From a virus: DNA of 32,535 nt. The position numbers were made by a program, and so were the translations under genes. The stretch covers positions 1 through 32,535 of IMG/VR virus record IMGVR_UViG_3300035184_001104, one strand, 5' to 3'. Of the stretch, positions 459 through 10,005 are shown piece by piece (positions within the stretch are counted from its first letter, which is position 1; the number at the start of each line of letters is the position of its first letter). Below the pieces are notes generated by a model. That model was not told where the DNA came from. It saw nothing but the letters and a program-made list of their open reading frames with translations, and did no database searches.

Positions 459-1274
459 ATGAAAACACATAATAATATTTTAGAAGGTATTGATGAAGAA
501 GGAACTCCGGATATGAAGTATTACGCTTTTGACTGGGATGATAATATCATGAATATGCCAACCAAAATTATATTAAAAGACGATGAGGGTGATGAGGTAG
601 GTATGTCTACTGAAGATTTCGCAGAGTATAGGACTTTAATAGGTAAAGAAGACTTTAACTATGAAGGTCATAATATTGTTGGTTTTGGGGAAGACCCATT
701 TAAAAATTTTGGAGTTAAAGGTGATAAACAATTTATAATTGACTCAATGTTAGCATCTGTAGGTCCGGCTTGGCCAGATTTTGTAGAAGCGATTAATAAC
801 GGGTCAATATTTTCGATAATAACGGCTAGAGGTCATACACCATCAATCTTAAAAGAAGCTTGTTATAATTTAATTGTGTCGAATCATAATGGTATCGATT
901 CAAATGAATTAGTTAAAAACTTAGAAAAATTTAGAGATATTAATGGTCAAGATGAAGTTTCTAAAAAAGATATGATAAGAGAATATTTAGATTTGTGTCG
1001 TTTCCACCCCGTTAGTTATGGTGAGGGTTCGGCGACAGACCCTGAAGAAGGTAAGGTTAGTGCTTTACGGGAATTTATTGAACACATTAAAGTTATCTCA
1101 AATGAAATTAAAAAAAGAGCCTTTCTTAAAAATAAAGTTTCAAATAATTTCACACCTACAATAGGTTTCTCAGATGACGATATACGTAACGTAGAGGTTA
1201 TTAAAGATAGATTTAAGGATGAACCTATGGTTAAAACATATTCGACCGCTGGTGGGGTTAAGAGACCATATTAA
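459..1274 (+). CDS. HAD-superfamily phosphatase-like protein
   Basis: The 271-aa protein shows the four haloacid dehalogenase motifs: FDWDDN (nucleophile D25, acid/base D27), SIITARG with T122, a candidate motif III lysine at K199 in EEGKVSAL, and the acidic motif IV GFSDDDIRN (D239-D241). HAD enzymes form an aspartyl-phosphate and are usually Mg-dependent phosphatases; in phages relatives act on polynucleotide ends or nucleotides, but the substrate cannot be read from this sequence. An insertion of about 90 residues between motifs I and II probably forms a cap. It sits between tail sheath and tail tube genes, which in T4 are adjacent. The start could also be ATG 513 (M19), just before the conserved KYYAFDWDDN, because a promoter-like element touches ATG 459. 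Confidence 0.75.
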   Translation: MKTHNNILEGIDEEGTPDMKYYAFDWDDNIMNMPTKIILKDDEGDEVGMSTEDFAEYRTLIGKEDFNYEGHNIVGFGEDPFKNFGVKGDKQFIIDSMLASVGPAWPDFVEAINNGSIFSIITARGHTPSILKEACYNLIVSNHNGIDSNELVKNLEKFRDINGQDEVSKKDMIREYLDLCRFHPVSYGEGSATDPEEGKVSALREFIEHIKVISNEIKKRAFLKNKVSNNFTPTIGFSDDDIRNVEVIKDRFKDEPMVKTYSTAGGVKRPY

Positions 1275-1472: not shown

Positions 1473-1961
1473 ATGGCTGATTTATTAATGAAAATGCCCA
1501 TACCATACGAACCAAAAAGACAAAATAGGTTCGTTCTGAGATTTCCATCATCTCTAGGGATAAATGAATGGTTCGTAGAGTCTACGGCTAGACCTAAAAT
1601 AACGGTGGCTTCTACAGAGATACAATTTTTAAACACCTCAACATATGTTGCTGGTAGATTTAATTGGGAACCTCTTAATGTTACATTTAGAGACCCTATT
1701 GGACCATCGGCTTCTCAAGCTTTAATGGAATGGGTTAGGTTATGTGCTGAATCTGTTACAGGTCGTATGGGTTACGCCGCAGGATATAAGAAAAATGTCG
1801 ATTTAGAATTACTAGACCCAACAGGTGTAGTTGTTGAAAAATGGATACTTGAAGGAACTTTTCTAACTTCAGTTGATTTTGGAAGTTTAGATTATAAGAC
1901 TGATGCTATCGCGACTATAACGGCTAGTATGAGAATGGACCGTTGTGTTTTAGTATATTAA
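1473..1961 (+). CDS. Tail tube protein (gp19-like)
   Basis: The 162-aa product matches the T4 gp19 family in size (T4: 163 aa) and pattern. It has an N-terminal PYEPKRQNRFVLRFP strand, a PKITVASTEI segment with the family's proline-bearing loop, a helix with WVRLCAESVTGRMGY, and an EKWILEGTFLTSVDFG beta hairpin near the end. Subunits stack as hexamers to form the inner tube through which DNA leaves. It follows the sheath gene with one HAD gene between, and is flanked upstream by a long repeat-rich leader and downstream by a strong terminator, suggesting its own, heavily transcribed unit. The ATG at 1473 is preceded by an A-rich tract (ATACAAAAACAA), the usual start context in this genome. Confidence 0.92.
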   Translation: MADLLMKMPIPYEPKRQNRFVLRFPSSLGINEWFVESTARPKITVASTEIQFLNTSTYVAGRFNWEPLNVTFRDPIGPSASQALMEWVRLCAESVTGRMGYAAGYKKNVDLELLDPTGVVVEKWILEGTFLTSVDFGSLDYKTDAIATITASMRMDRCVLVY

Positions 1962-2081: not shown

Positions 2082-2840
2082 ATGGATGATAACTTAGTAA
2101 AGGCTGGTACTGAAAATTTCAATTTACCACACGATGTTGTAAAATTACCCTCAGGTGGTAAATTTTATAAAAACAATAAAAAATCTGTTAAGGTTGGTTA
2201 CCTAACCGCTAGCGATGAAAATATGTTAATAAATGCATTACAAAATAACGCTAATGATTTAACGTATCAATTACTACGTAATAAAGTTTATGAGCACGAT
2301 ATGAGACCTGAAGATTTTATCGATGGTGATATTGAAGCAATACTTTTATTTTTACGTAATACGTCTTTTGGTCCTGAATATGAGGTTAAATTACAAGACC
2401 CGGGTACTTCAAAAATGTTTGACCATACAATAGTGTTGGATGAACTTGACGTTATAAGACCTGAGGTTGAACCTACTCAAGACGGGTATTTTAATGTAAA
2501 ATTACCTAAGTCTGAAGCGACAATTAAACTTAGACCACTTACTTTTGGTGAAAGTCGTGAGATAGAATCAAAAAAACTACAATATCCCGCAAGTAGAGTG
2601 GCTCCGATTGTTAATTGGAAATTAGAGTCTCAAATAATTGAGTTAAATGGGAGTGAAGATAAGGCAAATATAAGTAAATTTATTAATGAAATGCCAATAT
2701 TCGATTCAAAATTTATTAGAAAATTTTTAGATAAAAACGTTCCGGCCTTGGACTTAAAAAGGTCAATTTACGCCCCATCAGGAGAATTAGTGACATCTAA
2801 TGTTGCTTTCGGGGTGGAGTTTTTTCGTCCTTTCTTCTAA
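2082..2840 (+). CDS. gp26-like baseplate/tail assembly protein
   Basis: The 252-aa product resembles the T4 gp26 family. It opens with the characteristic LPSGGKFY motif and a KVGYLTASDENML segment, followed by a helical stretch and GDIEAILLFLRNTSFGPEY, matching the family's 'gD...il..lR..syG' signature, then a region of short strands and helices ending EFFRPFF. T4 gp26 is needed for baseplate hub assembly; in many related phages this gene occupies the place of the tail assembly chaperone upstream of the tape measure. The last codons overlap a +1-frame extension that continues to 2982 and looks homologous to the C-terminal part of longer relatives, so this protein may be the unshifted product of a frameshift pair. 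Family assignment is firm; the precise role is inferred. Confidence 0.78.
   Translation: MDDNLVKAGTENFNLPHDVVKLPSGGKFYKNNKKSVKVGYLTASDENMLINALQNNANDLTYQLLRNKVYEHDMRPEDFIDGDIEAILLFLRNTSFGPEYEVKLQDPGTSKMFDHTIVLDELDVIRPEVEPTQDGYFNVKLPKSEATIKLRPLTFGESREIESKKLQYPASRVAPIVNWKLESQIIELNGSEDKANISKFINEMPIFDSKFIRKFLDKNVPALDLKRSIYAPSGELVTSNVAFGVEFFRPFF
2811..2826 (+). promoter_or_regulatory. Candidate +1 programmed frameshift site
   Basis: Near the end of the gp26-like frame, codons TTT TTT are followed by C and a CGT codon, so a Phe tRNA can slip from TTT (2823-2825) onto TTC (2824-2826). A G-rich, Shine-Dalgarno-like stretch GGGGTGGAG (2811-2819) ends 3 nt before the slipping codon, the same spacing as the internal SD element of bacterial RF2 (prfB) +1 frameshifting. 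Such a G-run is unusual in this AT-rich genome. Shifting here joins the gp26-like frame to an open frame running to 2982. Confidence 0.55.
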
Positions 2841-2982
2841 CCACAGACAAGTTCTGCTCGAAGAGTTCTATATGATTAATAAATTCATAACTCTTTCGAT
2901 GAAAGAATTTAACGAAATGCCGATATACGGTAGAAAATATATTATAAACAGAATAATCGAAGATAATACACCAAAGAGTTAA
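2827..2982 (+). CDS. C-terminal frameshift extension of the gp26-like protein (or separate small ORF from ATG 2872)
   Basis: In the +1 frame, 51 residues follow the slip site without a stop. The segment NHRQVLLEEFYMINKF plus MKEFNEMPIYGRKYI resembles the C-terminal helical part of gp26-type and tail-chaperone proteins, where a histidine-led helix is followed by a 'MP.y.R..yi' motif. Protein-like sequence begins before the only good internal start, ATG 2872 (36-aa product), which argues for fusion by frameshifting rather than independent initiation. The predicted fused protein is about 299 aa. In many tailed phages the two products of such a pair assist tape measure folding and tube assembly, and the tape measure gene does follow directly. 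The translation mechanism is inferred, not proven. Confidence 0.6.
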   Translation, partial: VLSSNHRQVLLEEFYMINKFITLSMKEFNEMPIYGRKYIINRIIEDNTPKS

Positions 2983-3026: not shown

Positions 3027-5000
3027 ATGGCAACACCAAACGCAGATGGTTATTTAGATAAAATGGAGAAACTACTTTCAGATTCTCTTATACCTAATGC
3101 TCAAACTTTAATTGATAAAATAAGAGAGGTTGACGAAAAAGCATATCAAGTCGTAAAAACTTTTGGTCTAAGTAATACTCAAGTAATGGCGATTAAATCG
3201 TCTTTAACTGGAGCGGCTAGTGAAGTTGAACGATTAGGGGGACAGATGCAAGATGTTCTCGATATTCAAATACAGTTAGGTAAAGTAACGAATAGAAATA
3301 TTATACTAACATCAGACTCTTTTGCGGGTATATTTGCGGCTGCGGAAGTTTCAGGTCAATCTGCGGATGATATGGGTAAGTCATTTAAAGACACCGGATT
3401 TTCTTTATATAGTATTAGTGAACAAATGGAAGGTGTGATTAATACCGCTAGGTCCATGGGACTTAATACCAAAGAAATTTCATCACAGGTGATAGATAAT
3501 ATGGGTGAATTAAATAGGTTTAACTTTGAGGGTGGAGTGCAGGGGTTAGCTAAAATGGCGGCTAACGCAACTAATCTAAGAGTTGACATGAAAACCACAA
3601 TGGGTTTTGCCGAAAATGTTTTTGACCCAGAAAACGCTATTAAAATGGCAGCATCTATGCAGAGATTAGGTGTTAATGTTAGTGGTTTGAAAGACCCATT
3701 AGAGTTGATGTACAACGCTATGAATAATCCTGATAAATTAAATGACCAATTAGCTCAATTAGGTAAATCTTTTGTTAAAATGAATGCCGATGGTAATTTT
3801 GAAATTATGCCGGGGGCTAAAAGAAGATTAAGAGAATTAAATTCAGAATTAAAACTTCCTGCTGGTACACTTCAAAAAATGGGGTTAGCATCGGCAGAGT
3901 TAGATAAAAAAATGAGTCAAATTAGGATGCCTTCAGGGTTAAATCTTAGTAAAGAACAACAAACAATGATTGCTAATATGTCTGAGATGAAAGACGGGGT
4001 GGCGACAATTAAATTTACGGATGACAAAGGGGAAGCTCAAGAAAAAAATGTGATGTCGTTAGATGAGAAAGACTTGAAATCTATTGCGGAAACAGGGAGA
4101 CCTAAATCTATTGAGGAAATTCAACGAGGACAACTAAATCTTCAAGAAAGAATAAACGCGTCACTTAATGTTATAAAAGGTAAAGTGGCTACGGGTGTTG
4201 CCGGAGCTAAAACTACGGATGATGCTTTTAAAGGAGCAGCGAAAATAGAATCAGAATTATATGATTTTATAAGTAATAGTTTAGGTAAGACTAGTGAAAT
4301 AAGTAGTACTTTTGATAAAACATCGGATGTTTTAATTGACTCTATAGAAAATTTAGTATCGGGTGAACAAAGTCTAAGTGAGGTTTTTACTAATATAGGG
4401 TCTGTTGGTAATGAAATTGCAACACAATTAAATGAAAATTTTAAAGTCGCTCTCAGTACTGCGGAAACTAACCTTGATAAATTTGCAAGTGGTGATAATA
4501 AAATTGTACCTCTGTTGGAGGAGTTAATAGATAAAATGACGACGGTAGGGAATAATTCTCAAACACCGATTACACCGGTTGAAGATTTTATAAAAATGCC
4601 CGGAATGACAATAGAGCCGTTAGCGAAAGATACAATATTTGGAGGTACAGGGTTCGAAAGTTTTATCGATGGTCTTAAAGAAATGAAGACCCTTCCTAAT
4701 AAGACAATGGGGGTTAATAATGGTGAACTTGAAAGAATGGCGTTAGCTTCGGCAAAGTTAAGTAATAAAAGTAACGAACCTCAAACACCGATTGAGACAA
4801 AATCTACCGCAGATATTAATTTAAATATAAAAATAGACGCTCCCAATCAAATAGATACTAATCAAATTATTTTAGCCTTGGAAAACCAAGGGGTAAAACA
4901 AAAATTATATCAGTCTATGAAAGAGGCCATGTACAATAATGGGTTAAGTGCTCCAACTTCTTCTAAAACTAAACTAATGAACCCTTATCTTAACCGCTAA
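3027..5000 (+). CDS. Tail tape measure protein
   Basis: The 657-aa protein is mostly helical, with coiled-coil-like heptads at the N-terminus and a central block around residues 165-215 (FNFEGGVQGLAKMAA, then DPENAIKMAASMQRLG) typical of tape measure proteins. The C-terminal half is Lys/Glu/Thr-rich and ends in a beta-rich stretch followed by a basic tail. The tape measure sets tail length and is ejected with or before DNA; at about 0.15 nm per residue, 657 aa would give a tail near 100 nm, close to T4, whose gp29 has 590 aa. Position directly after the assembly/frameshift gene pair and before baseplate hub genes is the standard order. No lytic or peptidase domain is recognisable in it, unlike many tape measures. 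Confidence 0.82.
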   Translation: MATPNADGYLDKMEKLLSDSLIPNAQTLIDKIREVDEKAYQVVKTFGLSNTQVMAIKSSLTGAASEVERLGGQMQDVLDIQIQLGKVTNRNIILTSDSFAGIFAAAEVSGQSADDMGKSFKDTGFSLYSISEQMEGVINTARSMGLNTKEISSQVIDNMGELNRFNFEGGVQGLAKMAANATNLRVDMKTTMGFAENVFDPENAIKMAASMQRLGVNVSGLKDPLELMYNAMNNPDKLNDQLAQLGKSFVKMNADGNFEIMPGAKRRLRELNSELKLPAGTLQKMGLASAELDKKMSQIRMPSGLNLSKEQQTMIANMSEMKDGVATIKFTDDKGEAQEKNVMSLDEKDLKSIAETGRPKSIEEIQRGQLNLQERINASLNVIKGKVATGVAGAKTTDDAFKGAAKIESELYDFISNSLGKTSEISSTFDKTSDVLIDSIENLVSGEQSLSEVFTNIGSVGNEIATQLNENFKVALSTAETNLDKFASGDNKIVPLLEELIDKMTTVGNNSQTPITPVEDFIKMPGMTIEPLAKDTIFGGTGFESFIDGLKEMKTLPNKTMGVNNGELERMALASAKLSNKSNEPQTPIETKSTADINLNIKIDAPNQIDTNQIILALENQGVKQKLYQSMKEAMYNNGLSAPTSSKTKLMNPYLNR

Positions 5001-5046: not shown

Positions 5047-8000
5047 ATGAGTAGTTTATCATTCGCTTCAACATCTACATTTAGGAATGCACTTATGGGT
5101 GTTAATTTACCACCATATACTGTTCCGGGTACTTATACACCTCCGGTAGGTGTTTTAACCTACCCAACACAATTAAGTAATTATAGTGTTGTTGATTCCC
5201 CTGATTTTTTAATCGCCAATAGTCCATTCCCTAATCAATCTTATGTTTTAAATGAGTTTGGTCCTACGGGTGGTTTTAATAATTCGATTACGTTTAACGG
5301 TCCCTTAGTACCTATTTTACCAACATATGCGGAATATAGTCCTAATCAGACTAATATGGATATATTAAACGATACATTCATTGACGCGGCTTACATACAG
5401 AATGCTTACGGACCTAATGGAGGTTATCAGTATATGGTTGACATAACGGATATACAGTTAAATAACTTTATTTATCAACCTTATTGGGACCCACCTAATT
5501 TTGTGGCGTCAAGTTATGACCCTTATTCTATACTTTTTTCGGATAATCCTCAAGGTGATGTAGGTCCTTTATCTCAAGATTCGTATTTAGCTAGATTAGG
5601 AGCTGAACAACTTAAAATTTCTTTTCAGAATAGAGTTGACGCTGAAATATATCAAAACACGGTTGGTTTAGTTAATTTGGACTCATTACAAGACCCATTT
5701 GAGGCGTCTTTAATTGCGACAGGTAAAGAACCTTTAATATATAGAAATTGGAGGATTACGGTTCCTGAGAATCCGATATTACAAGCGGTTGATTTTGTTA
5801 CTAGATTGGGAGGGGCATATTGGCCTGTATCTCCTATACCGGGTGATTATTTTGATGAACCTAATTTTGATAGTAAACAAACGTCTAATGCTTTAAATGT
5901 TGTTAATCAATTAACAGGAGGTTTTTTAGGTCCTATTCTTAATAAAAGAAGACAACCTTCACAAGTGTTTATTGCCAACACCGGTAATGGTCAAAGGTCG
6001 GCTCTTTTTAGGTCGTTAGATTACAATAGGTACCAACCAGGTTTTAATAAAGATTTTGGTGGGTTATTGGGTATTGGTCAAGGATTGGTTAATCTTGCAA
6101 TTGATTTAATAAATCCGGATAACGGAACATTAAATGGAGGTTATTACGTTGGTAGTAAAGACGCCGACCCATCTACAATAACATCACCACCTAATCAAGT
6201 CCCTGTTAACCCATTTGGTCAACAAGAACAGTCTCCTGTTTATGGCCCATCTGAGATGGGTAAACTATATGAGGGTAATATTGGTAGTTTAAATTTTGGA
6301 CTTGCAGGAAAATCATTTAGTGATGGTGGTGGAATAACGGGAGAGTTTGTTTGGGTTTCACCTAAATATAAACCAAATGCCGGTTTTAAAGCGACTCCGG
6401 GAGGTGGTAGTGGTTCTCAAGACGAAGATTATGATATTATAGCCGGTCAGTTTACTAGAGGGGAATCTACCAATCTTACATTTAAAGAGACCTCAATATT
6501 AGACCGAACACAGAGACTTGTTGATTCGGCGGATAATGTTTCGGGAATTGCTAGATTAAAACACGTAGGTAATGCTATTAATCAAGTTAGTAAAGTTTTT
6601 AATGATGGGTATAAAGAGATAACTAAAGGTTCTCAAGTATTATCATATACTGATAATTCTGACGGGTCTCAAGCCGGTATTGAATATTGTCGAGTTTTTA
6701 CTAAAGATACTCCTTACTACACTTACAATGATTTACAAAAAACGGAAGGTATTGTCGATTCAGGTCGAAAATTTAATAATTCAGTTCTAAAAAATACTTT
6801 TAATTTAAATATTGCCCCTACGAGTGAAAATGTTATTGAGGCTAGTCAAGATAACTTTATCGCTAAAAAATATATGTTCTCGATTGAAAACTTAGCTTGG
6901 AGAACGTCAAGTAAACCAGGGTTTAGATATGATGATTTACCTAATTGTGAAAAAGGTCCTAATGGTGGTAGAGTAATGTGGTTTCCACCTTATGATATTG
7001 AATTTAGTGAGACTAACACCGCTAATTGGAATTCGACTTCATTTTTAGGAAGACCCGAACCTATGTATACATATAAAGATACTTCTAGAGCTGGTAGTTT
7101 AAAATGGAAAATAATTGTTGACCATCCATCTATAATGAATTTAATCGTTAAGAAACAATTAGAAGGTGTTTCTAAGGATAGGGTGAACTCTATGTTGGAT
7201 TCTTTCTTTGCAGGATGTTTAAAATATGATTTATATGATTTAGGTATTAAATTTAATACTATTCCATCGTCTGATTTATTTACGTATCAAGAGTTATTAA
7301 GTAATAACCCTACAACTGAGGTGGTGAGAACAATCATACAAGAACTACCTGATAAAGATAATTCTAAAGATACCCCTGACCCTAGTATTGAGACTTTTAA
7401 AAGTAAATACAAAGGATTGGCGTTCTATTTTGACAACGATATTCCTGACCCTAACACTAGAAATACGACATCGTCTGTACCGTTTCAACAAACATATGGA
7501 CCGTATACTAGTCAATCAAACATTGATAATTATGTGTCTGAAGCCAATGGCCTTTTTGTTGATGGTAGTACTGAAAAAAATGTTAAACAATTCTTTGATA
7601 CCGTTGTAATTGATAATTATAATACTATAGCTAATAATACAAGTGGTAATTTTATTAAAGATGCTTTCGACATATTAAAAGAAAAGAAAGGTCGAATAAA
7701 TATAACATTAATTGGGTCGGCATCGGCACCCGCATCCGAAGATTACAATAAAACATTATCTCAAAGGAGAATTGATTCGGTTAAACAATTTCTTGAGAGT
7801 TTTACATCGGGGGACGCTAATTTAAAACAATATTTTGACGACAAGACCATTTTAATAAGTGAAACAAAGGCTGTAGGTGAGGAAAATATTTCTAATGAAG
7901 AAATTATTTCCCCTAAAACCTCTAATGGTGATTTTGGGTCGCCGGTTGATTGTACAAAAAATATTAAAGATAGAGATGGTAAAACTAATAGAGGTTCTCA

Positions 8001-10005
8001 AATATATTCTGTAAATGCCATGGCTTGTAGAAGAGTGTCTATTAATCAAATTGAAGTTATACCTACTGAGACTATACCTGAATTAGAAGATAAAATAATA
8101 GAGACTAATGTTACAAAAGATAATTTTACTAAAACAACTCAAGAGAGATTAAAAGAAGGTATAGGTAAAAGAATTTTAAGAAAACTATTGTCGGAATGTG
8201 ATTATTTTGAAGTGATTCGACAAGAAAGTCCAATGGTATATGATTCTATTAAGGAAAAGATAAAATATTTTAATCCTGCTTTTCATTCTATGACTCCGGA
8301 AGGTTTAAATGGGAGGTTGACTTTTTTAAATCAATGTCTAAGACCTGGTGAGACAATACCTATAGTTAGGACTGATAGTAATGGTAACGATACTTTAGTT
8401 AGTAATGACGCTACCAATACTTCATTTGGTACCCCACCGATTTTAGTTTTAAGAATTGGAGATTTTTATAATACTAAAATAGTACCTAAGAGTGTAAACA
8501 TCTCGTATAACCCACTTAATTTAGATTTAAATCCGGAGGGTATAGGTGTTCAACCTATGGTTGCGGAGGTTAATATGTCGTTTGATTTTATTGGTGGTCA
8601 GGGGTTAACCGGACCGGTTGAACAATTACAAAACGCGTTATCATTCAATTATTATGCTAACACTGAAATATATGATGAAAGAGCGGTGGCAACCGAAGAT
8701 AGGTCAACATTAGACCGAGAGTTAATTAATAGAATATTAGATACGGAAGAACAGGTAAGAGTTGAGAATGACCTACCGAATGAAGGGGGTAATACTATTG
8801 GTACAGTGACTTCTGAGAATACCGTTCCCTCTGGTTTGACGGGTACTATGACTTATAAAAGTATAGTGGATGATTTATTGAAAGTTGAGAACGACTATTA
8901 TGTTTCTATACCAAATAAGGTTGAAACATTTATTAATGAAGAAAACTTTGGTATTTGGCAGTTAGTTTCTAAAAATAGAAAGTATATCGATGGTAATGGT
9001 TTTATTGGTTCGGGAACAACTTTTAACGAGGGGAGCGATTTTCCAACTCGAATTTATGGAAAACCTGAAAAAACTCAAGAAAATATAGATAATTTATTTC
9101 AATTTTTAATTAATGATATAGAAGAACCTTACTCTAGTAATAAAAACTTTATAATTAAAGGATTGGTTGATAAGAATATAAGTAAAGGAGATGTAGAATC
9201 TGTTCAGACTAACATGGTAAATTATATTAATAGTTATAGAGCTACGTTTTCATCACCAATATTTACAAAAATTAATGAAATAACGGAACAACAACAAAAC
9301 ATGGTTCAAGTCCTAAGAGAAATTAATTTAATCTCAAAAAAGTTTGACGGTAAAATACCGGAGTCAGGTATCCCTATTATATATAATACAACCTCAACCG
9401 ATAAAGTTGATAATTCATCGACATCTGCTGAAAATACTTTTCAAGAACTTTGTGATGATTATAAAAAAGTTCTTTTGGCTTTTAACCAGTTCTATGAAGA
9501 ACTTTTATGTAATAAAAACAGTACCTCTTCAGATGAACCATTTATAACAGAAGATGGTAGTAATTATGATGAAGATACGGGTACATTTAATTGGGTAGGT
9601 AATGCTGAAAACGATGACTTGGTGAATCAACATATGTTTTTGATTTTATCAAATGTGTTTAATAATGAGGATAAACTTGAAATATTTAATGATGCTGTAA
9701 TAACCGCACCTATAAATAAAAATGGTAGATTAAAAAGAATTTTTAGAAGACTCTGTAATGAATTTGCGGATATAGTCAAAGAAGAGTTGGGTGAGGAACA
9801 AAAATTAATTGAGGATTTTAAGTCGCTGCAATCTTACACAAGTTTCGTAAATAACTCAGACGGTGTTATTGAAGGTAAAGTTAGGGAATTTGATTATTCC
9901 ACGGTTGTAATTGCGGCTGATATATCTCAACAACAAACACTACTAAAAGAACTCTATAGACCTGCCGGTGGTGATAAATGGGATAGTGTTGTAAAATTTA
10001 TTTAA
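5047..10005 (+). CDS. Giant baseplate/tail protein with embedded OmpA-like peptidoglycan-binding domain
   Basis: The 1652-aa protein begins with a Pro/Tyr/Gly/Asn-rich region carrying a repeated motif (NEFGPTGGF at 69-77, NAYGPNGGY at 119-127). Around residues 640-740 it has RVMWFPPYDIEFSE, a tryptophan, then EPMYTYKDTSR and LKWKIIVDHPS, a pattern reminiscent of tube-initiator/CIS-tube proteins; a second similar beta segment (SVNISYNPLNLDLNPEG) lies near residues 1150-1200. Between them, about 849-960, is an OmpA-family domain: IGSASAP strand at 889, then NKTLSQRRIDSVKQFL from N901 with R907/R908 in the diaminopimelate-contacting position. The C-terminus is mostly helical. It is the first gene of the hub operon, four bases from the LysM gene. 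It is probably a virion protein linking tube, hub and cell wall; the domain calls are by eye and the overall role is inferred. Confidence 0.7.
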   Translation: MSSLSFASTSTFRNALMGVNLPPYTVPGTYTPPVGVLTYPTQLSNYSVVDSPDFLIANSPFPNQSYVLNEFGPTGGFNNSITFNGPLVPILPTYAEYSPNQTNMDILNDTFIDAAYIQNAYGPNGGYQYMVDITDIQLNNFIYQPYWDPPNFVASSYDPYSILFSDNPQGDVGPLSQDSYLARLGAEQLKISFQNRVDAEIYQNTVGLVNLDSLQDPFEASLIATGKEPLIYRNWRITVPENPILQAVDFVTRLGGAYWPVSPIPGDYFDEPNFDSKQTSNALNVVNQLTGGFLGPILNKRRQPSQVFIANTGNGQRSALFRSLDYNRYQPGFNKDFGGLLGIGQGLVNLAIDLINPDNGTLNGGYYVGSKDADPSTITSPPNQVPVNPFGQQEQSPVYGPSEMGKLYEGNIGSLNFGLAGKSFSDGGGITGEFVWVSPKYKPNAGFKATPGGGSGSQDEDYDIIAGQFTRGESTNLTFKETSILDRTQRLVDSADNVSGIARLKHVGNAINQVSKVFNDGYKEITKGSQVLSYTDNSDGSQAGIEYCRVFTKDTPYYTYNDLQKTEGIVDSGRKFNNSVLKNTFNLNIAPTSENVIEASQDNFIAKKYMFSIENLAWRTSSKPGFRYDDLPNCEKGPNGGRVMWFPPYDIEFSETNTANWNSTSFLGRPEPMYTYKDTSRAGSLKWKIIVDHPSIMNLIVKKQLEGVSKDRVNSMLDSFFAGCLKYDLYDLGIKFNTIPSSDLFTYQELLSNNPTTEVVRTIIQELPDKDNSKDTPDPSIETFKSKYKGLAFYFDNDIPDPNTRNTTSSVPFQQTYGPYTSQSNIDNYVSEANGLFVDGSTEKNVKQFFDTVVIDNYNTIANNTSGNFIKDAFDILKEKKGRINITLIGSASAPASEDYNKTLSQRRIDSVKQFLESFTSGDANLKQYFDDKTILISETKAVGEENISNEEIISPKTSNGDFGSPVDCTKNIKDRDGKTNRGSQIYSVNAMACRRVSINQIEVIPTETIPELEDKIIETNVTKDNFTKTTQERLKEGIGKRILRKLLSECDYFEVIRQESPMVYDSIKEKIKYFNPAFHSMTPEGLNGRLTFLNQCLRPGETIPIVRTDSNGNDTLVSNDATNTSFGTPPILVLRIGDFYNTKIVPKSVNISYNPLNLDLNPEGIGVQPMVAEVNMSFDFIGGQGLTGPVEQLQNALSFNYYANTEIYDERAVATEDRSTLDRELINRILDTEEQVRVENDLPNEGGNTIGTVTSENTVPSGLTGTMTYKSIVDDLLKVENDYYVSIPNKVETFINEENFGIWQLVSKNRKYIDGNGFIGSGTTFNEGSDFPTRIYGKPEKTQENIDNLFQFLINDIEEPYSSNKNFIIKGLVDKNISKGDVESVQTNMVNYINSYRATFSSPIFTKINEITEQQQNMVQVLREINLISKKFDGKIPESGIPIIYNTTSTDKVDNSSTSAENTFQELCDDYKKVLLAFNQFYEELLCNKNSTSSDEPFITEDGSNYDEDTGTFNWVGNAENDDLVNQHMFLILSNVFNNEDKLEIFNDAVITAPINKNGRLKRIFRRLCNEFADIVKEELGEEQKLIEDFKSLQSYTSFVNNSDGVIEGKVREFDYSTVVIAADISQQQTLLKELYRPAGGDKWDSVVKFI

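What the first reader, a model, noticed from the sequence alone, without database searches (positions are those of the whole stretch)
2811..2982. RF2-like +1 frameshift cassette in the gp26-type tail assembly gene
The frame of the gp26-like protein stops at 2838-2840, but a +1 frame continues with protein-like sequence homologous in style to the C-terminal part of longer relatives. The overlap contains TTT TTT C, preceded by GGGGTGGAG with 3 nt between GGAG and the slipping codon, which is the geometry of the bacterial prfB frameshift. Tail assembly chaperones of many tailed phages use frameshifting, mostly -1; a +1, SD-stimulated case in a T4-like phage of a low-SD host group would be unusual. 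A caveat is that Bacteroidota ribosomes are thought to use SD pairing little.
Basis: partly seen in the sequence, partly recalled or inferred. Interest (0 to 1): 0.75.

Follow-up and report, generated by a model that had tools for sequence, protein, structure and literature searches.

The report
+1 frameshift in phage tail-chaperone gene
A T4-type phage appears to make a short and a long form of its tail-assembly chaperone from one gene, by letting some ribosomes skip one base at a TTTTTTC site just before the stop codon; relatives shift in either direction at the same spot, and T4 itself uses two separate genes instead.

Summary
Gene 2082-2840 (PF12322, T4 gp26/gp51 family, between tail tube and tape measure) stops three codons after TTT TTT CGT; a +1 frame runs through the stop to 2982. 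All 79 close loci that reach the stop, and all 79 loci of a second, Flavobacterium-phage-related group, keep this +1 frame open. It is under purifying selection (dN/dS 0.12-0.13) and starts at a conserved Phe-Phe/Leu; TTT TTT is invariant in the close group while other conserved Phe codons vary. The +1 tail is predicted as a confident three-helix domain that the ATG at 2872 would truncate. Distant relatives reach a homologous tail by +1 (SP-15, GXN1, RM378) or by -1 at T_TTT_TTC (80/80 cyanophage-like loci). T4 gp26 matches the short form and gp51 the long form; that identity and -1 signals were published in 2022 (seen here only through citations). The RF2 analogy is weak: GGAG is not conserved; the invariant GGGG is the 3' arm of a hairpin with GCCCC that shows compensatory changes. 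Best reading: programmed +1 slippage, UUU to UUC, before a rare CGN codon, perhaps helped by the 5' hairpin. Translation itself is untested.

The parts
2082..2840 (+). Short form of the tail-assembly chaperone (frame 0, 252 aa), T4 gp26/gp51 family
   Evidence: PF12322 E 3.7e-10, phrog_150 E 5.9e-14, predicted fold matches BFVD baseplate hub proteins such as SP-15, TM 0.80
2824..2982 (+). +1-frame C-terminal (T) domain of the long form, from the re-paired codon TTC 2824-2826 to the stop 2980-2982; long form 299 aa
   Evidence: Open in all close loci, dN/dS 0.12; AlphaFold three helices, pLDDT 90; read with TTTC=F
2820..2828 (+). Slip site TTT TTT CGT: UUU (2823-2825) in the P site slips to UUC (2824-2826) with CGT in the A site
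   Evidence: TTT TTT in 54/54 distinct close loci, next codon always CGN; invariant codons against a within-gene control
2771..2776 (+). 5' arm (CGCCCC) of the hairpin upstream of the slip site
   Evidence: RNAalifold and 42/45 MFE folds; pair counts; fold of the window's own sequence
2811..2816 (+).
   Evidence: As for the 5' arm; GGG is 54/54 here but 10% of Gly codons in these genes
2816..2819 (+). GGAG, the proposed SD-like element; not conserved
   Evidence: GAG 38, GAA 16 of 54, and the base before it varies
2838..2840 (+). Frame-0 stop TAA that ends the short form
1473..1961 (+). Tail tube gene (gp19-like), upstream neighbour
   Evidence: phrog_4542 E 2.1e-26
3027..5000 (+). 657-aa gene in the tape-measure position, downstream neighbour
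   Evidence: Gene order as in immuto and SP-15, whose records name the tape measure there; own family match weak

Best explanation
The locus is a tail-assembly chaperone gene of the T4 gp26/gp51 family. Most ribosomes make the 252-aa short form (equivalent to T4 gp26). A minority slip +1 at UUU_UUU_CGU: peptidyl-tRNA-Phe moves from UUU to UUC while the rare Arg codon CGN waits in the A site, and translation goes on for 51 codons in the +1 frame, giving a 299-aa long form with a three-helix C-terminal domain (equivalent to T4 gp51). By analogy with lambda gpG/gpGT, the short form would bind the tape measure protein and the long form would recruit the tail tube. In the window's own clade a hairpin just 5' of the site (GCCCC:GGGGY), closing behind the ribosome, may favour the forward slip. 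Shown by sequence: the conserved frame, selection on it, invariant slip codons, hairpin pairing, homology to gp26/gp51, gene order. Inferred: that frameshifting occurs, its efficiency, which codon slips, the parts played by hairpin and rare codon, and the chaperone function.
For: +1 frame open in 79/79 close and 79/79 second-group loci; dN/dS 0.12 and 0.13; invariant TTT TTT in the close group and invariant slip TTT in the second against varying Phe codons elsewhere in the gene; A-site CGC/CGG in 36/54 close loci although 0-0.2% of Arg codons in these genes; T domain folds as three helices that begin right after the shift; no start codon before the MP motif in 40/57 distinct second-group loci; same junction in SP-15, GXN1, Mel-JY01, RM378 by +1 and in cyanophage-like loci by -1; fused forms align across the junction with each other and, for the cyanophage form, with T4 gp51; hairpin with compensatory changes; tube-chaperone-tape measure gene order.
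Against: No protein or reporter data. Bacteroidia ribosomes, the likely hosts, occlude the anti-SD, so SD help is doubtful. The third base of the CGN codon is also set by the +1 amino acid, so its rarity is not clean evidence. The hairpin is absent from the second group and four of its seven pairs never vary. The window's T domain alone matches the gp51 tail only weakly.
Confidence: 0.88

Rival explanations
1. The T segment is an independent small gene started inside the +1 frame (for the window, ATG 2872, 36 aa), as annotators have it in SP-15, immuto and the cyanophages ('gp51').
For: An ATG exists at 2872, and an ATG lies within 12 nt after the stop in about half of the cyanophage-like loci. 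Annotated small ORFs in several records. TAATG overlaps in VAP7, D509 and Cygsa01 point to reinitiation there.
Against: In-frame ATG positions differ between close loci and 11/79 have none; no ATG lies near the stop in any of the 79. 40/57 distinct second-group loci have no ATG, GTG or TTG before the MP motif. ATG 2872 would cut off most of helix 1. Invariant slip codons would be unexplained.
Confidence: 0.05
2. RF2-like +1 frameshift stimulated by SD pairing of GGGGTGGAG.
For: Geometry right in the window; close-group sites bind the anti-SD better (mean -7.6) than random positions (-3.3, sd 2.4; 6% as strong), RF2 -10.3. GGGG invariant.
Against: GGAG not conserved and best anti-SD energies range down to -5.1; 61 clusters as strong in the window; the window's genes use no SD; Bacteroidia ribosomes occlude the anti-SD; hairpin explains GGGG and GCCCC together.
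Confidence: 0.2
3. The same frame is reached by -2 slippage or by transcriptional slippage on the T run.
For: -2 gives the same frame; runs of six or seven T occur in the close group and half of the second.
Against: About half of the second group has TTT CTT TGG or TTT CTA TGG, with no long T run; UUU to UUC re-pairing at +1 is simpler.
Confidence: 0.06
4. Sequencing or assembly error, or a decayed gene.
For: Overlapping frames in a metagenomic contig can be artefacts.
Against: Two other metagenome contigs carry the identical protein and site; 158 loci share the arrangement; purifying selection in that frame.
Confidence: 0.01

Closest known systems
[quoted passage not shown] known here only by title and through PMC10885494 and PMC12846349)
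   Same: Same protein family; short and long forms; poly-T slip signals are credited to it for T4-like TAC-N genes.
   Different: T4 itself uses two genes and the cited signals are -1; here the shift is +1 with a CGN codon and a 5' hairpin. Whether the paper mentions +1 members could not be checked.
Lambda gpG/gpGT and relatives (Xu, Hendrix and Duda 2004; PMC5009743)
   Same: Gene upstream of the tape measure; short form plus minor long form by frameshift near the 3' end.
   Different: -1 instead of +1; no sequence relation to lambda G shown here; HK97 chaperone fold match not significant.
prfB (RF2) +1 frameshift
   Same: +1 direction, pyrimidine slip codon, G-rich stretch upstream; some prfB genes slip on UUU (PMC12421855).
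   Different: No stop codon in the A site, no conserved SD at 3 nt, no autoregulation.
Influenza A PA-X +1 site UCC_UUU_CGU (reference in PMC5009743)
   Same: P-site UUU to UUC slip with CGU in the A site, +1.
   Different: Bacterial ribosomes; here an upstream hairpin; PA-X has no evident stimulator and very low efficiency.
Halorubrum virus HSTV-2, likely +1 in its tail-assembly gene (PMC5009743)
   Same: +1 direction in a tail-assembly gene of a myovirus.
   Different: Archaeal virus; not compared at sequence level here.

Membership tests
PF12322 / phrog_150 (T4 gp26/gp51) | Profile match above the curated cut-off | tested here: met
   40.3 bits against a cut-off of 24.5; phrog_150 E 5.9e-14
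Frameshifted tail-assembly chaperone (G/GT, TAC-N/TAC-NC) | Gene between tail tube and tape measure | tested here: met
   Tube at 1473-1961; tape-measure position 3027-5000 by gene order with immuto and SP-15; own tape-measure match weak
Frameshifted tail-assembly chaperone (G/GT, TAC-N/TAC-NC) | Conserved out-of-frame C-terminal domain reached from a conserved slip site near the 3' end | tested here: met
Frameshifted tail-assembly chaperone (G/GT, TAC-N/TAC-NC) | Long form homologous to T4 gp51 through the T domain | tested here: inconclusive
   Strong for the cyanophage fused form against gp51 (E 5e-17); window group linked to it across the junction at E 1e-5; window T alone to the gp51 tail E 0.007; fused window form to gp51 directly not significant
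Frameshifted tail-assembly chaperone (G/GT, TAC-N/TAC-NC) | Both products made in a fixed ratio and absent from the virion | not testable with these tools
   Needs proteomics
RF2-type (SD-stimulated) +1 frameshift | Conserved SD-like element 3 nt before the slip codon | tested here: not met
   GGAG in only part of the close group, absent in the second
RF2-type (SD-stimulated) +1 frameshift | Slip codon followed by a stop codon in the A site | tested here: not met
   CGN, TGG, CTN or CAC follow
-1 X_XXY_YYZ frameshift of T4-like TAC genes | T_TTT_TTC heptamer with the T domain in the -1 frame | tested here: not met
   Not in the window or the two +1 groups; present in 80/80 cyanophage-like loci

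The most novel reading that the evidence does not exclude
A +1 frameshift driven by a hairpin that closes behind the ribosome and pulls the mRNA forward by one base, used in SD-blind hosts in place of SD pairing, within a chaperone family whose members switch between +1, -1 and gene duplication.
Probability: 0.3. Interest if true: 0.78.

Novelty: new variant of a known kind. Interest (0 to 1): 0.6.

Why it matters
Tail-assembly chaperones of long-tailed phages are the classic bacterial -1 frameshift system, and T4 was listed as the exception (PMC5009743). This locus adds a conserved +1 solution inside the T4 chaperone family, with a clear UUU|CGN slip site and a candidate stimulator 5' of it. 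Because +1, -1 and two-gene versions occur in one protein family at one Phe-Phe position, it is a natural experiment on how frameshift direction evolves. The flavobacterial phage immuto is in culture, so it can be tested. It also accounts for cyanophage 'gp51' being only about 20% of the length of other gp51 proteins and for the 'missing' gp51 of Aeh1 (PMC3037559), though the 2022 paper may already say so.

Tried and rejected
Independent start at ATG 2872: rejected as the conserved mode. RF2-like SD: not conserved and, as a match to the anti-SD, common in the window. Downstream structure: no conserved stem 3' of the site in the three groups (mean z -0.4 to -1.5). Hairpin in the second +1 group or the cyanophages: none found. 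PDB search with the short form and BFVD search with the T domain: nothing significant. tblastn of the T frame alone in phage records: no match. Apparent +1 in cyanophage S-SCSM1: looks like a 10-base insertion after a -1 site and was not counted. My idea that 'gp26 = short form, gp51 = long form' was new proved to be anticipated by the 2022 paper, which is not held.

Full report
What is there. The window is a virus record of 32,535 bases. The gene 2082-2840 encodes 252 aa of the T4 gp26/gp51 family (PF12322, E 3.7e-10; phrog_150, E 5.9e-14). It follows the tail tube gene 1473-1961 and precedes a 657-aa gene in the place of the tape measure. Its end reads GGG GTG GAG TTT TTT CGT CCT TTC TTC TAA (2811-2840). 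The +1 frame is open from 2800 to 2982 and gives, after a shift at TTT...VEFF|VLSSNHRQVLLEEFYMINKFITLSMKEFNEMPIYGRKYIINRIIEDNTPKS.

Conservation. Scans of IMG/VR gave a close group (the window plus 78 loci that reach the stop, 51-100% identical) and a second group around Flavobacterium phage immuto (79 loci). In every one the +1 frame runs on, for 45-57 codons in the close group and 76-101 in the second, and the -1 frame is shorter (one close locus ends inside the tail). Changes fall mainly on third positions of the +1 frame; dN/dS is 0.12 and 0.13. The close-group site is GGG GYN GAR TTT TTT CGN, then CCT or GTT, TTC TTC and a stop, with TTT TTT in 54/54 distinct loci. The second group has TTT [TTT, CTT or CTA] TGG, with one TAC variant. 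As a control for shared ancestry, of 57 degenerate columns with one conserved amino acid in the close group only seven have one codon throughout: GGG, TTT, TTT, TTC, TTC at the site, and GCC and GGA further up. TTC TTC are also fixed by the +1 reading (Leu-Ser-Ser); GGG and TTT TTT are not. In the second group the only invariant Phe codon is the slip TTT.

The tail. AlphaFold gives the T segment three helices (3-19, 26-31, 34-48) with mean pLDDT 90 from an alignment of both groups. The first helix begins two residues after the shift; a start at ATG 2872 (residue 17) would lose most of it. Forty of 57 distinct second-group loci have no start codon at all before the MP motif. So T looks like the C-terminal domain of a fused protein rather than a gene of its own.

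Wider family. The same relation is found at the same Phe-Phe in isolates. By +1: Bacillus phage SP-15 (TTT TTT CAC), Streptococcus phage GXN1 (TTC TTT CGT), Microcystis phage Mel-JY01 and Rhodothermus phage RM378 (TTT TTT TGG), immuto (TTT CTT TGG) and a huge phage contig (TTT CTA). By -1 at T_TTT_TTC: 80 of 80 cyanophage-like loci, and S-SSM5, ACP17, Moby, Aeh1, a Schizotequatrovirus, X1, SRB7757 and Bakedbeans. VAP7, D509 and Cygsa01 have instead a TAATG overlap. T4 and the other Straboviridae compared (Aeh1 and the Schizotequatrovirus apart) carry gp51 as one long gene, and T4's gp26 ends at ...EFFELL. Profile comparison: fused cyanophage form against gp51 E 5e-17 over the whole length, against gp26 E 1e-15 up to the shift; window group against second group E 8e-30; window group against cyanophage fused form E 1e-5 across the junction. 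The window's T alone against the gp51 tail is weak (E 0.007), and its fused form against gp51 directly is not significant.

How it works. One rule fits the +1 sites: peptidyl-tRNA-Phe on UUU, followed by a pyrimidine, slips to UUC or UUU. In the close group the next codon is CGN; CGC and CGG make up 36 of 54 cases although they are 0-0.2% of Arg codons elsewhere in these genes. This fits a slow A-site codon, with the caution that its third base is also chosen by the +1 reading. UUU_CGU is the +1 site reported for influenza PA-X (reference in PMC5009743).

The G-rich stretch. GGAG is not conserved, the window's genes use no SD, and the window's + strand has 61 clusters that match the anti-SD as well. 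GGGG, however, is invariant. With the equally invariant GCCCC, 34 nt further up, it forms a hairpin (window 2771-2776 with 2811-2816). 42 of 45 MFE folds contain it; 93% of cells pair; 19 cells show double changes where shuffles give 5.8 (sd 3.3), with 0 of 500 as high; slid versions pair at 32-59%. Four of the seven pairs never vary, and the hairpin is not found in the second group, so it is a clade-specific candidate stimulator. A hairpin closing at the ribosome's rear could favour forward slippage; this is inference. Bacteroidia ribosomes occlude the anti-SD (PMC8710568), and low prfB frameshifting is reported for F. johnsoniae (PMC12421855). That the window's own host is a bacteroidote is inferred from the immuto relationship and the lack of SD sequences.

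What is known. The 2016 review lists T4 as the exception to G/GT frameshifting (PMC5009743). Vladimirov, Gautam and Davidson (2022) identified the T4-like chaperone genes. I know it only from its title and two citing papers, which credit it with the short-plus-fusion gene pair and poly-T slip signals; it is not held. The identity of gp26 and gp51 and the -1 mode are therefore not claimed as new. The ten paper searches turned up no held paper that describes +1 in this family, or the hairpin; I read only a few of the hits. Sullivan et al. 2010 noted that cyanophage gp51 lacks the first ~200 aa and that Aeh1 lacks gp51 (PMC3037559); the out-of-frame T domain accounts for both.

Verdict. A real, conserved, very probably programmed +1 frameshift in a T4-type tail-assembly chaperone gene: a new variant of a known kind. 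The frame and the selection on it are shown; the translation event, its efficiency and its stimulators are not.

Noticed in passing
L270 (Aeromonas phage Aeh1) 1742-1920: Aeh1, reported to lack gp51, has a T domain in the -1 frame after T_TTT_TTC at the end of its gp26 gene.
   Followed up: partly
L175 (cyanophage S-SCSM1), about 3170-3210: The T domain is in +1 although the site is the cyanophage -1 heptamer; about 10 extra bases after the site seem to have changed the frame (real insertion or assembly error).
   Followed up: no
L178, L271, L272 (Cygsa01, D509, VAP7), end of the gp26-like gene: T domain in -1 but with a TAATG stop-start overlap and no perfect heptamer: perhaps reinitiation instead of frameshifting.
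   Followed up: no
L013 (Xanthomonas phage XacN1) 3740-3980 and L014 3300-3950: These distant relatives have the tail in the -1 frame, at T runs near the same Phe-Phe.
   Followed up: no
window 2781-2783 (GGA) and the same place in close relatives: GGA of the APSG motif is invariant at codon level in 55 distinct sequences, which the hairpin does not explain.
   Followed up: no
window 459-1274: 271-aa gene between sheath and tube with a DWDDN motif like that of HAD phosphatases; no Pfam or PHROG match above threshold.
   Followed up: no
window 5047-10005: 1,652-aa protein with a stretch that looks like an OmpA-type motif (ITLIGSASAPASEDYNKTLSQRRIDSVKQFL); by eye only.
   Followed up: no
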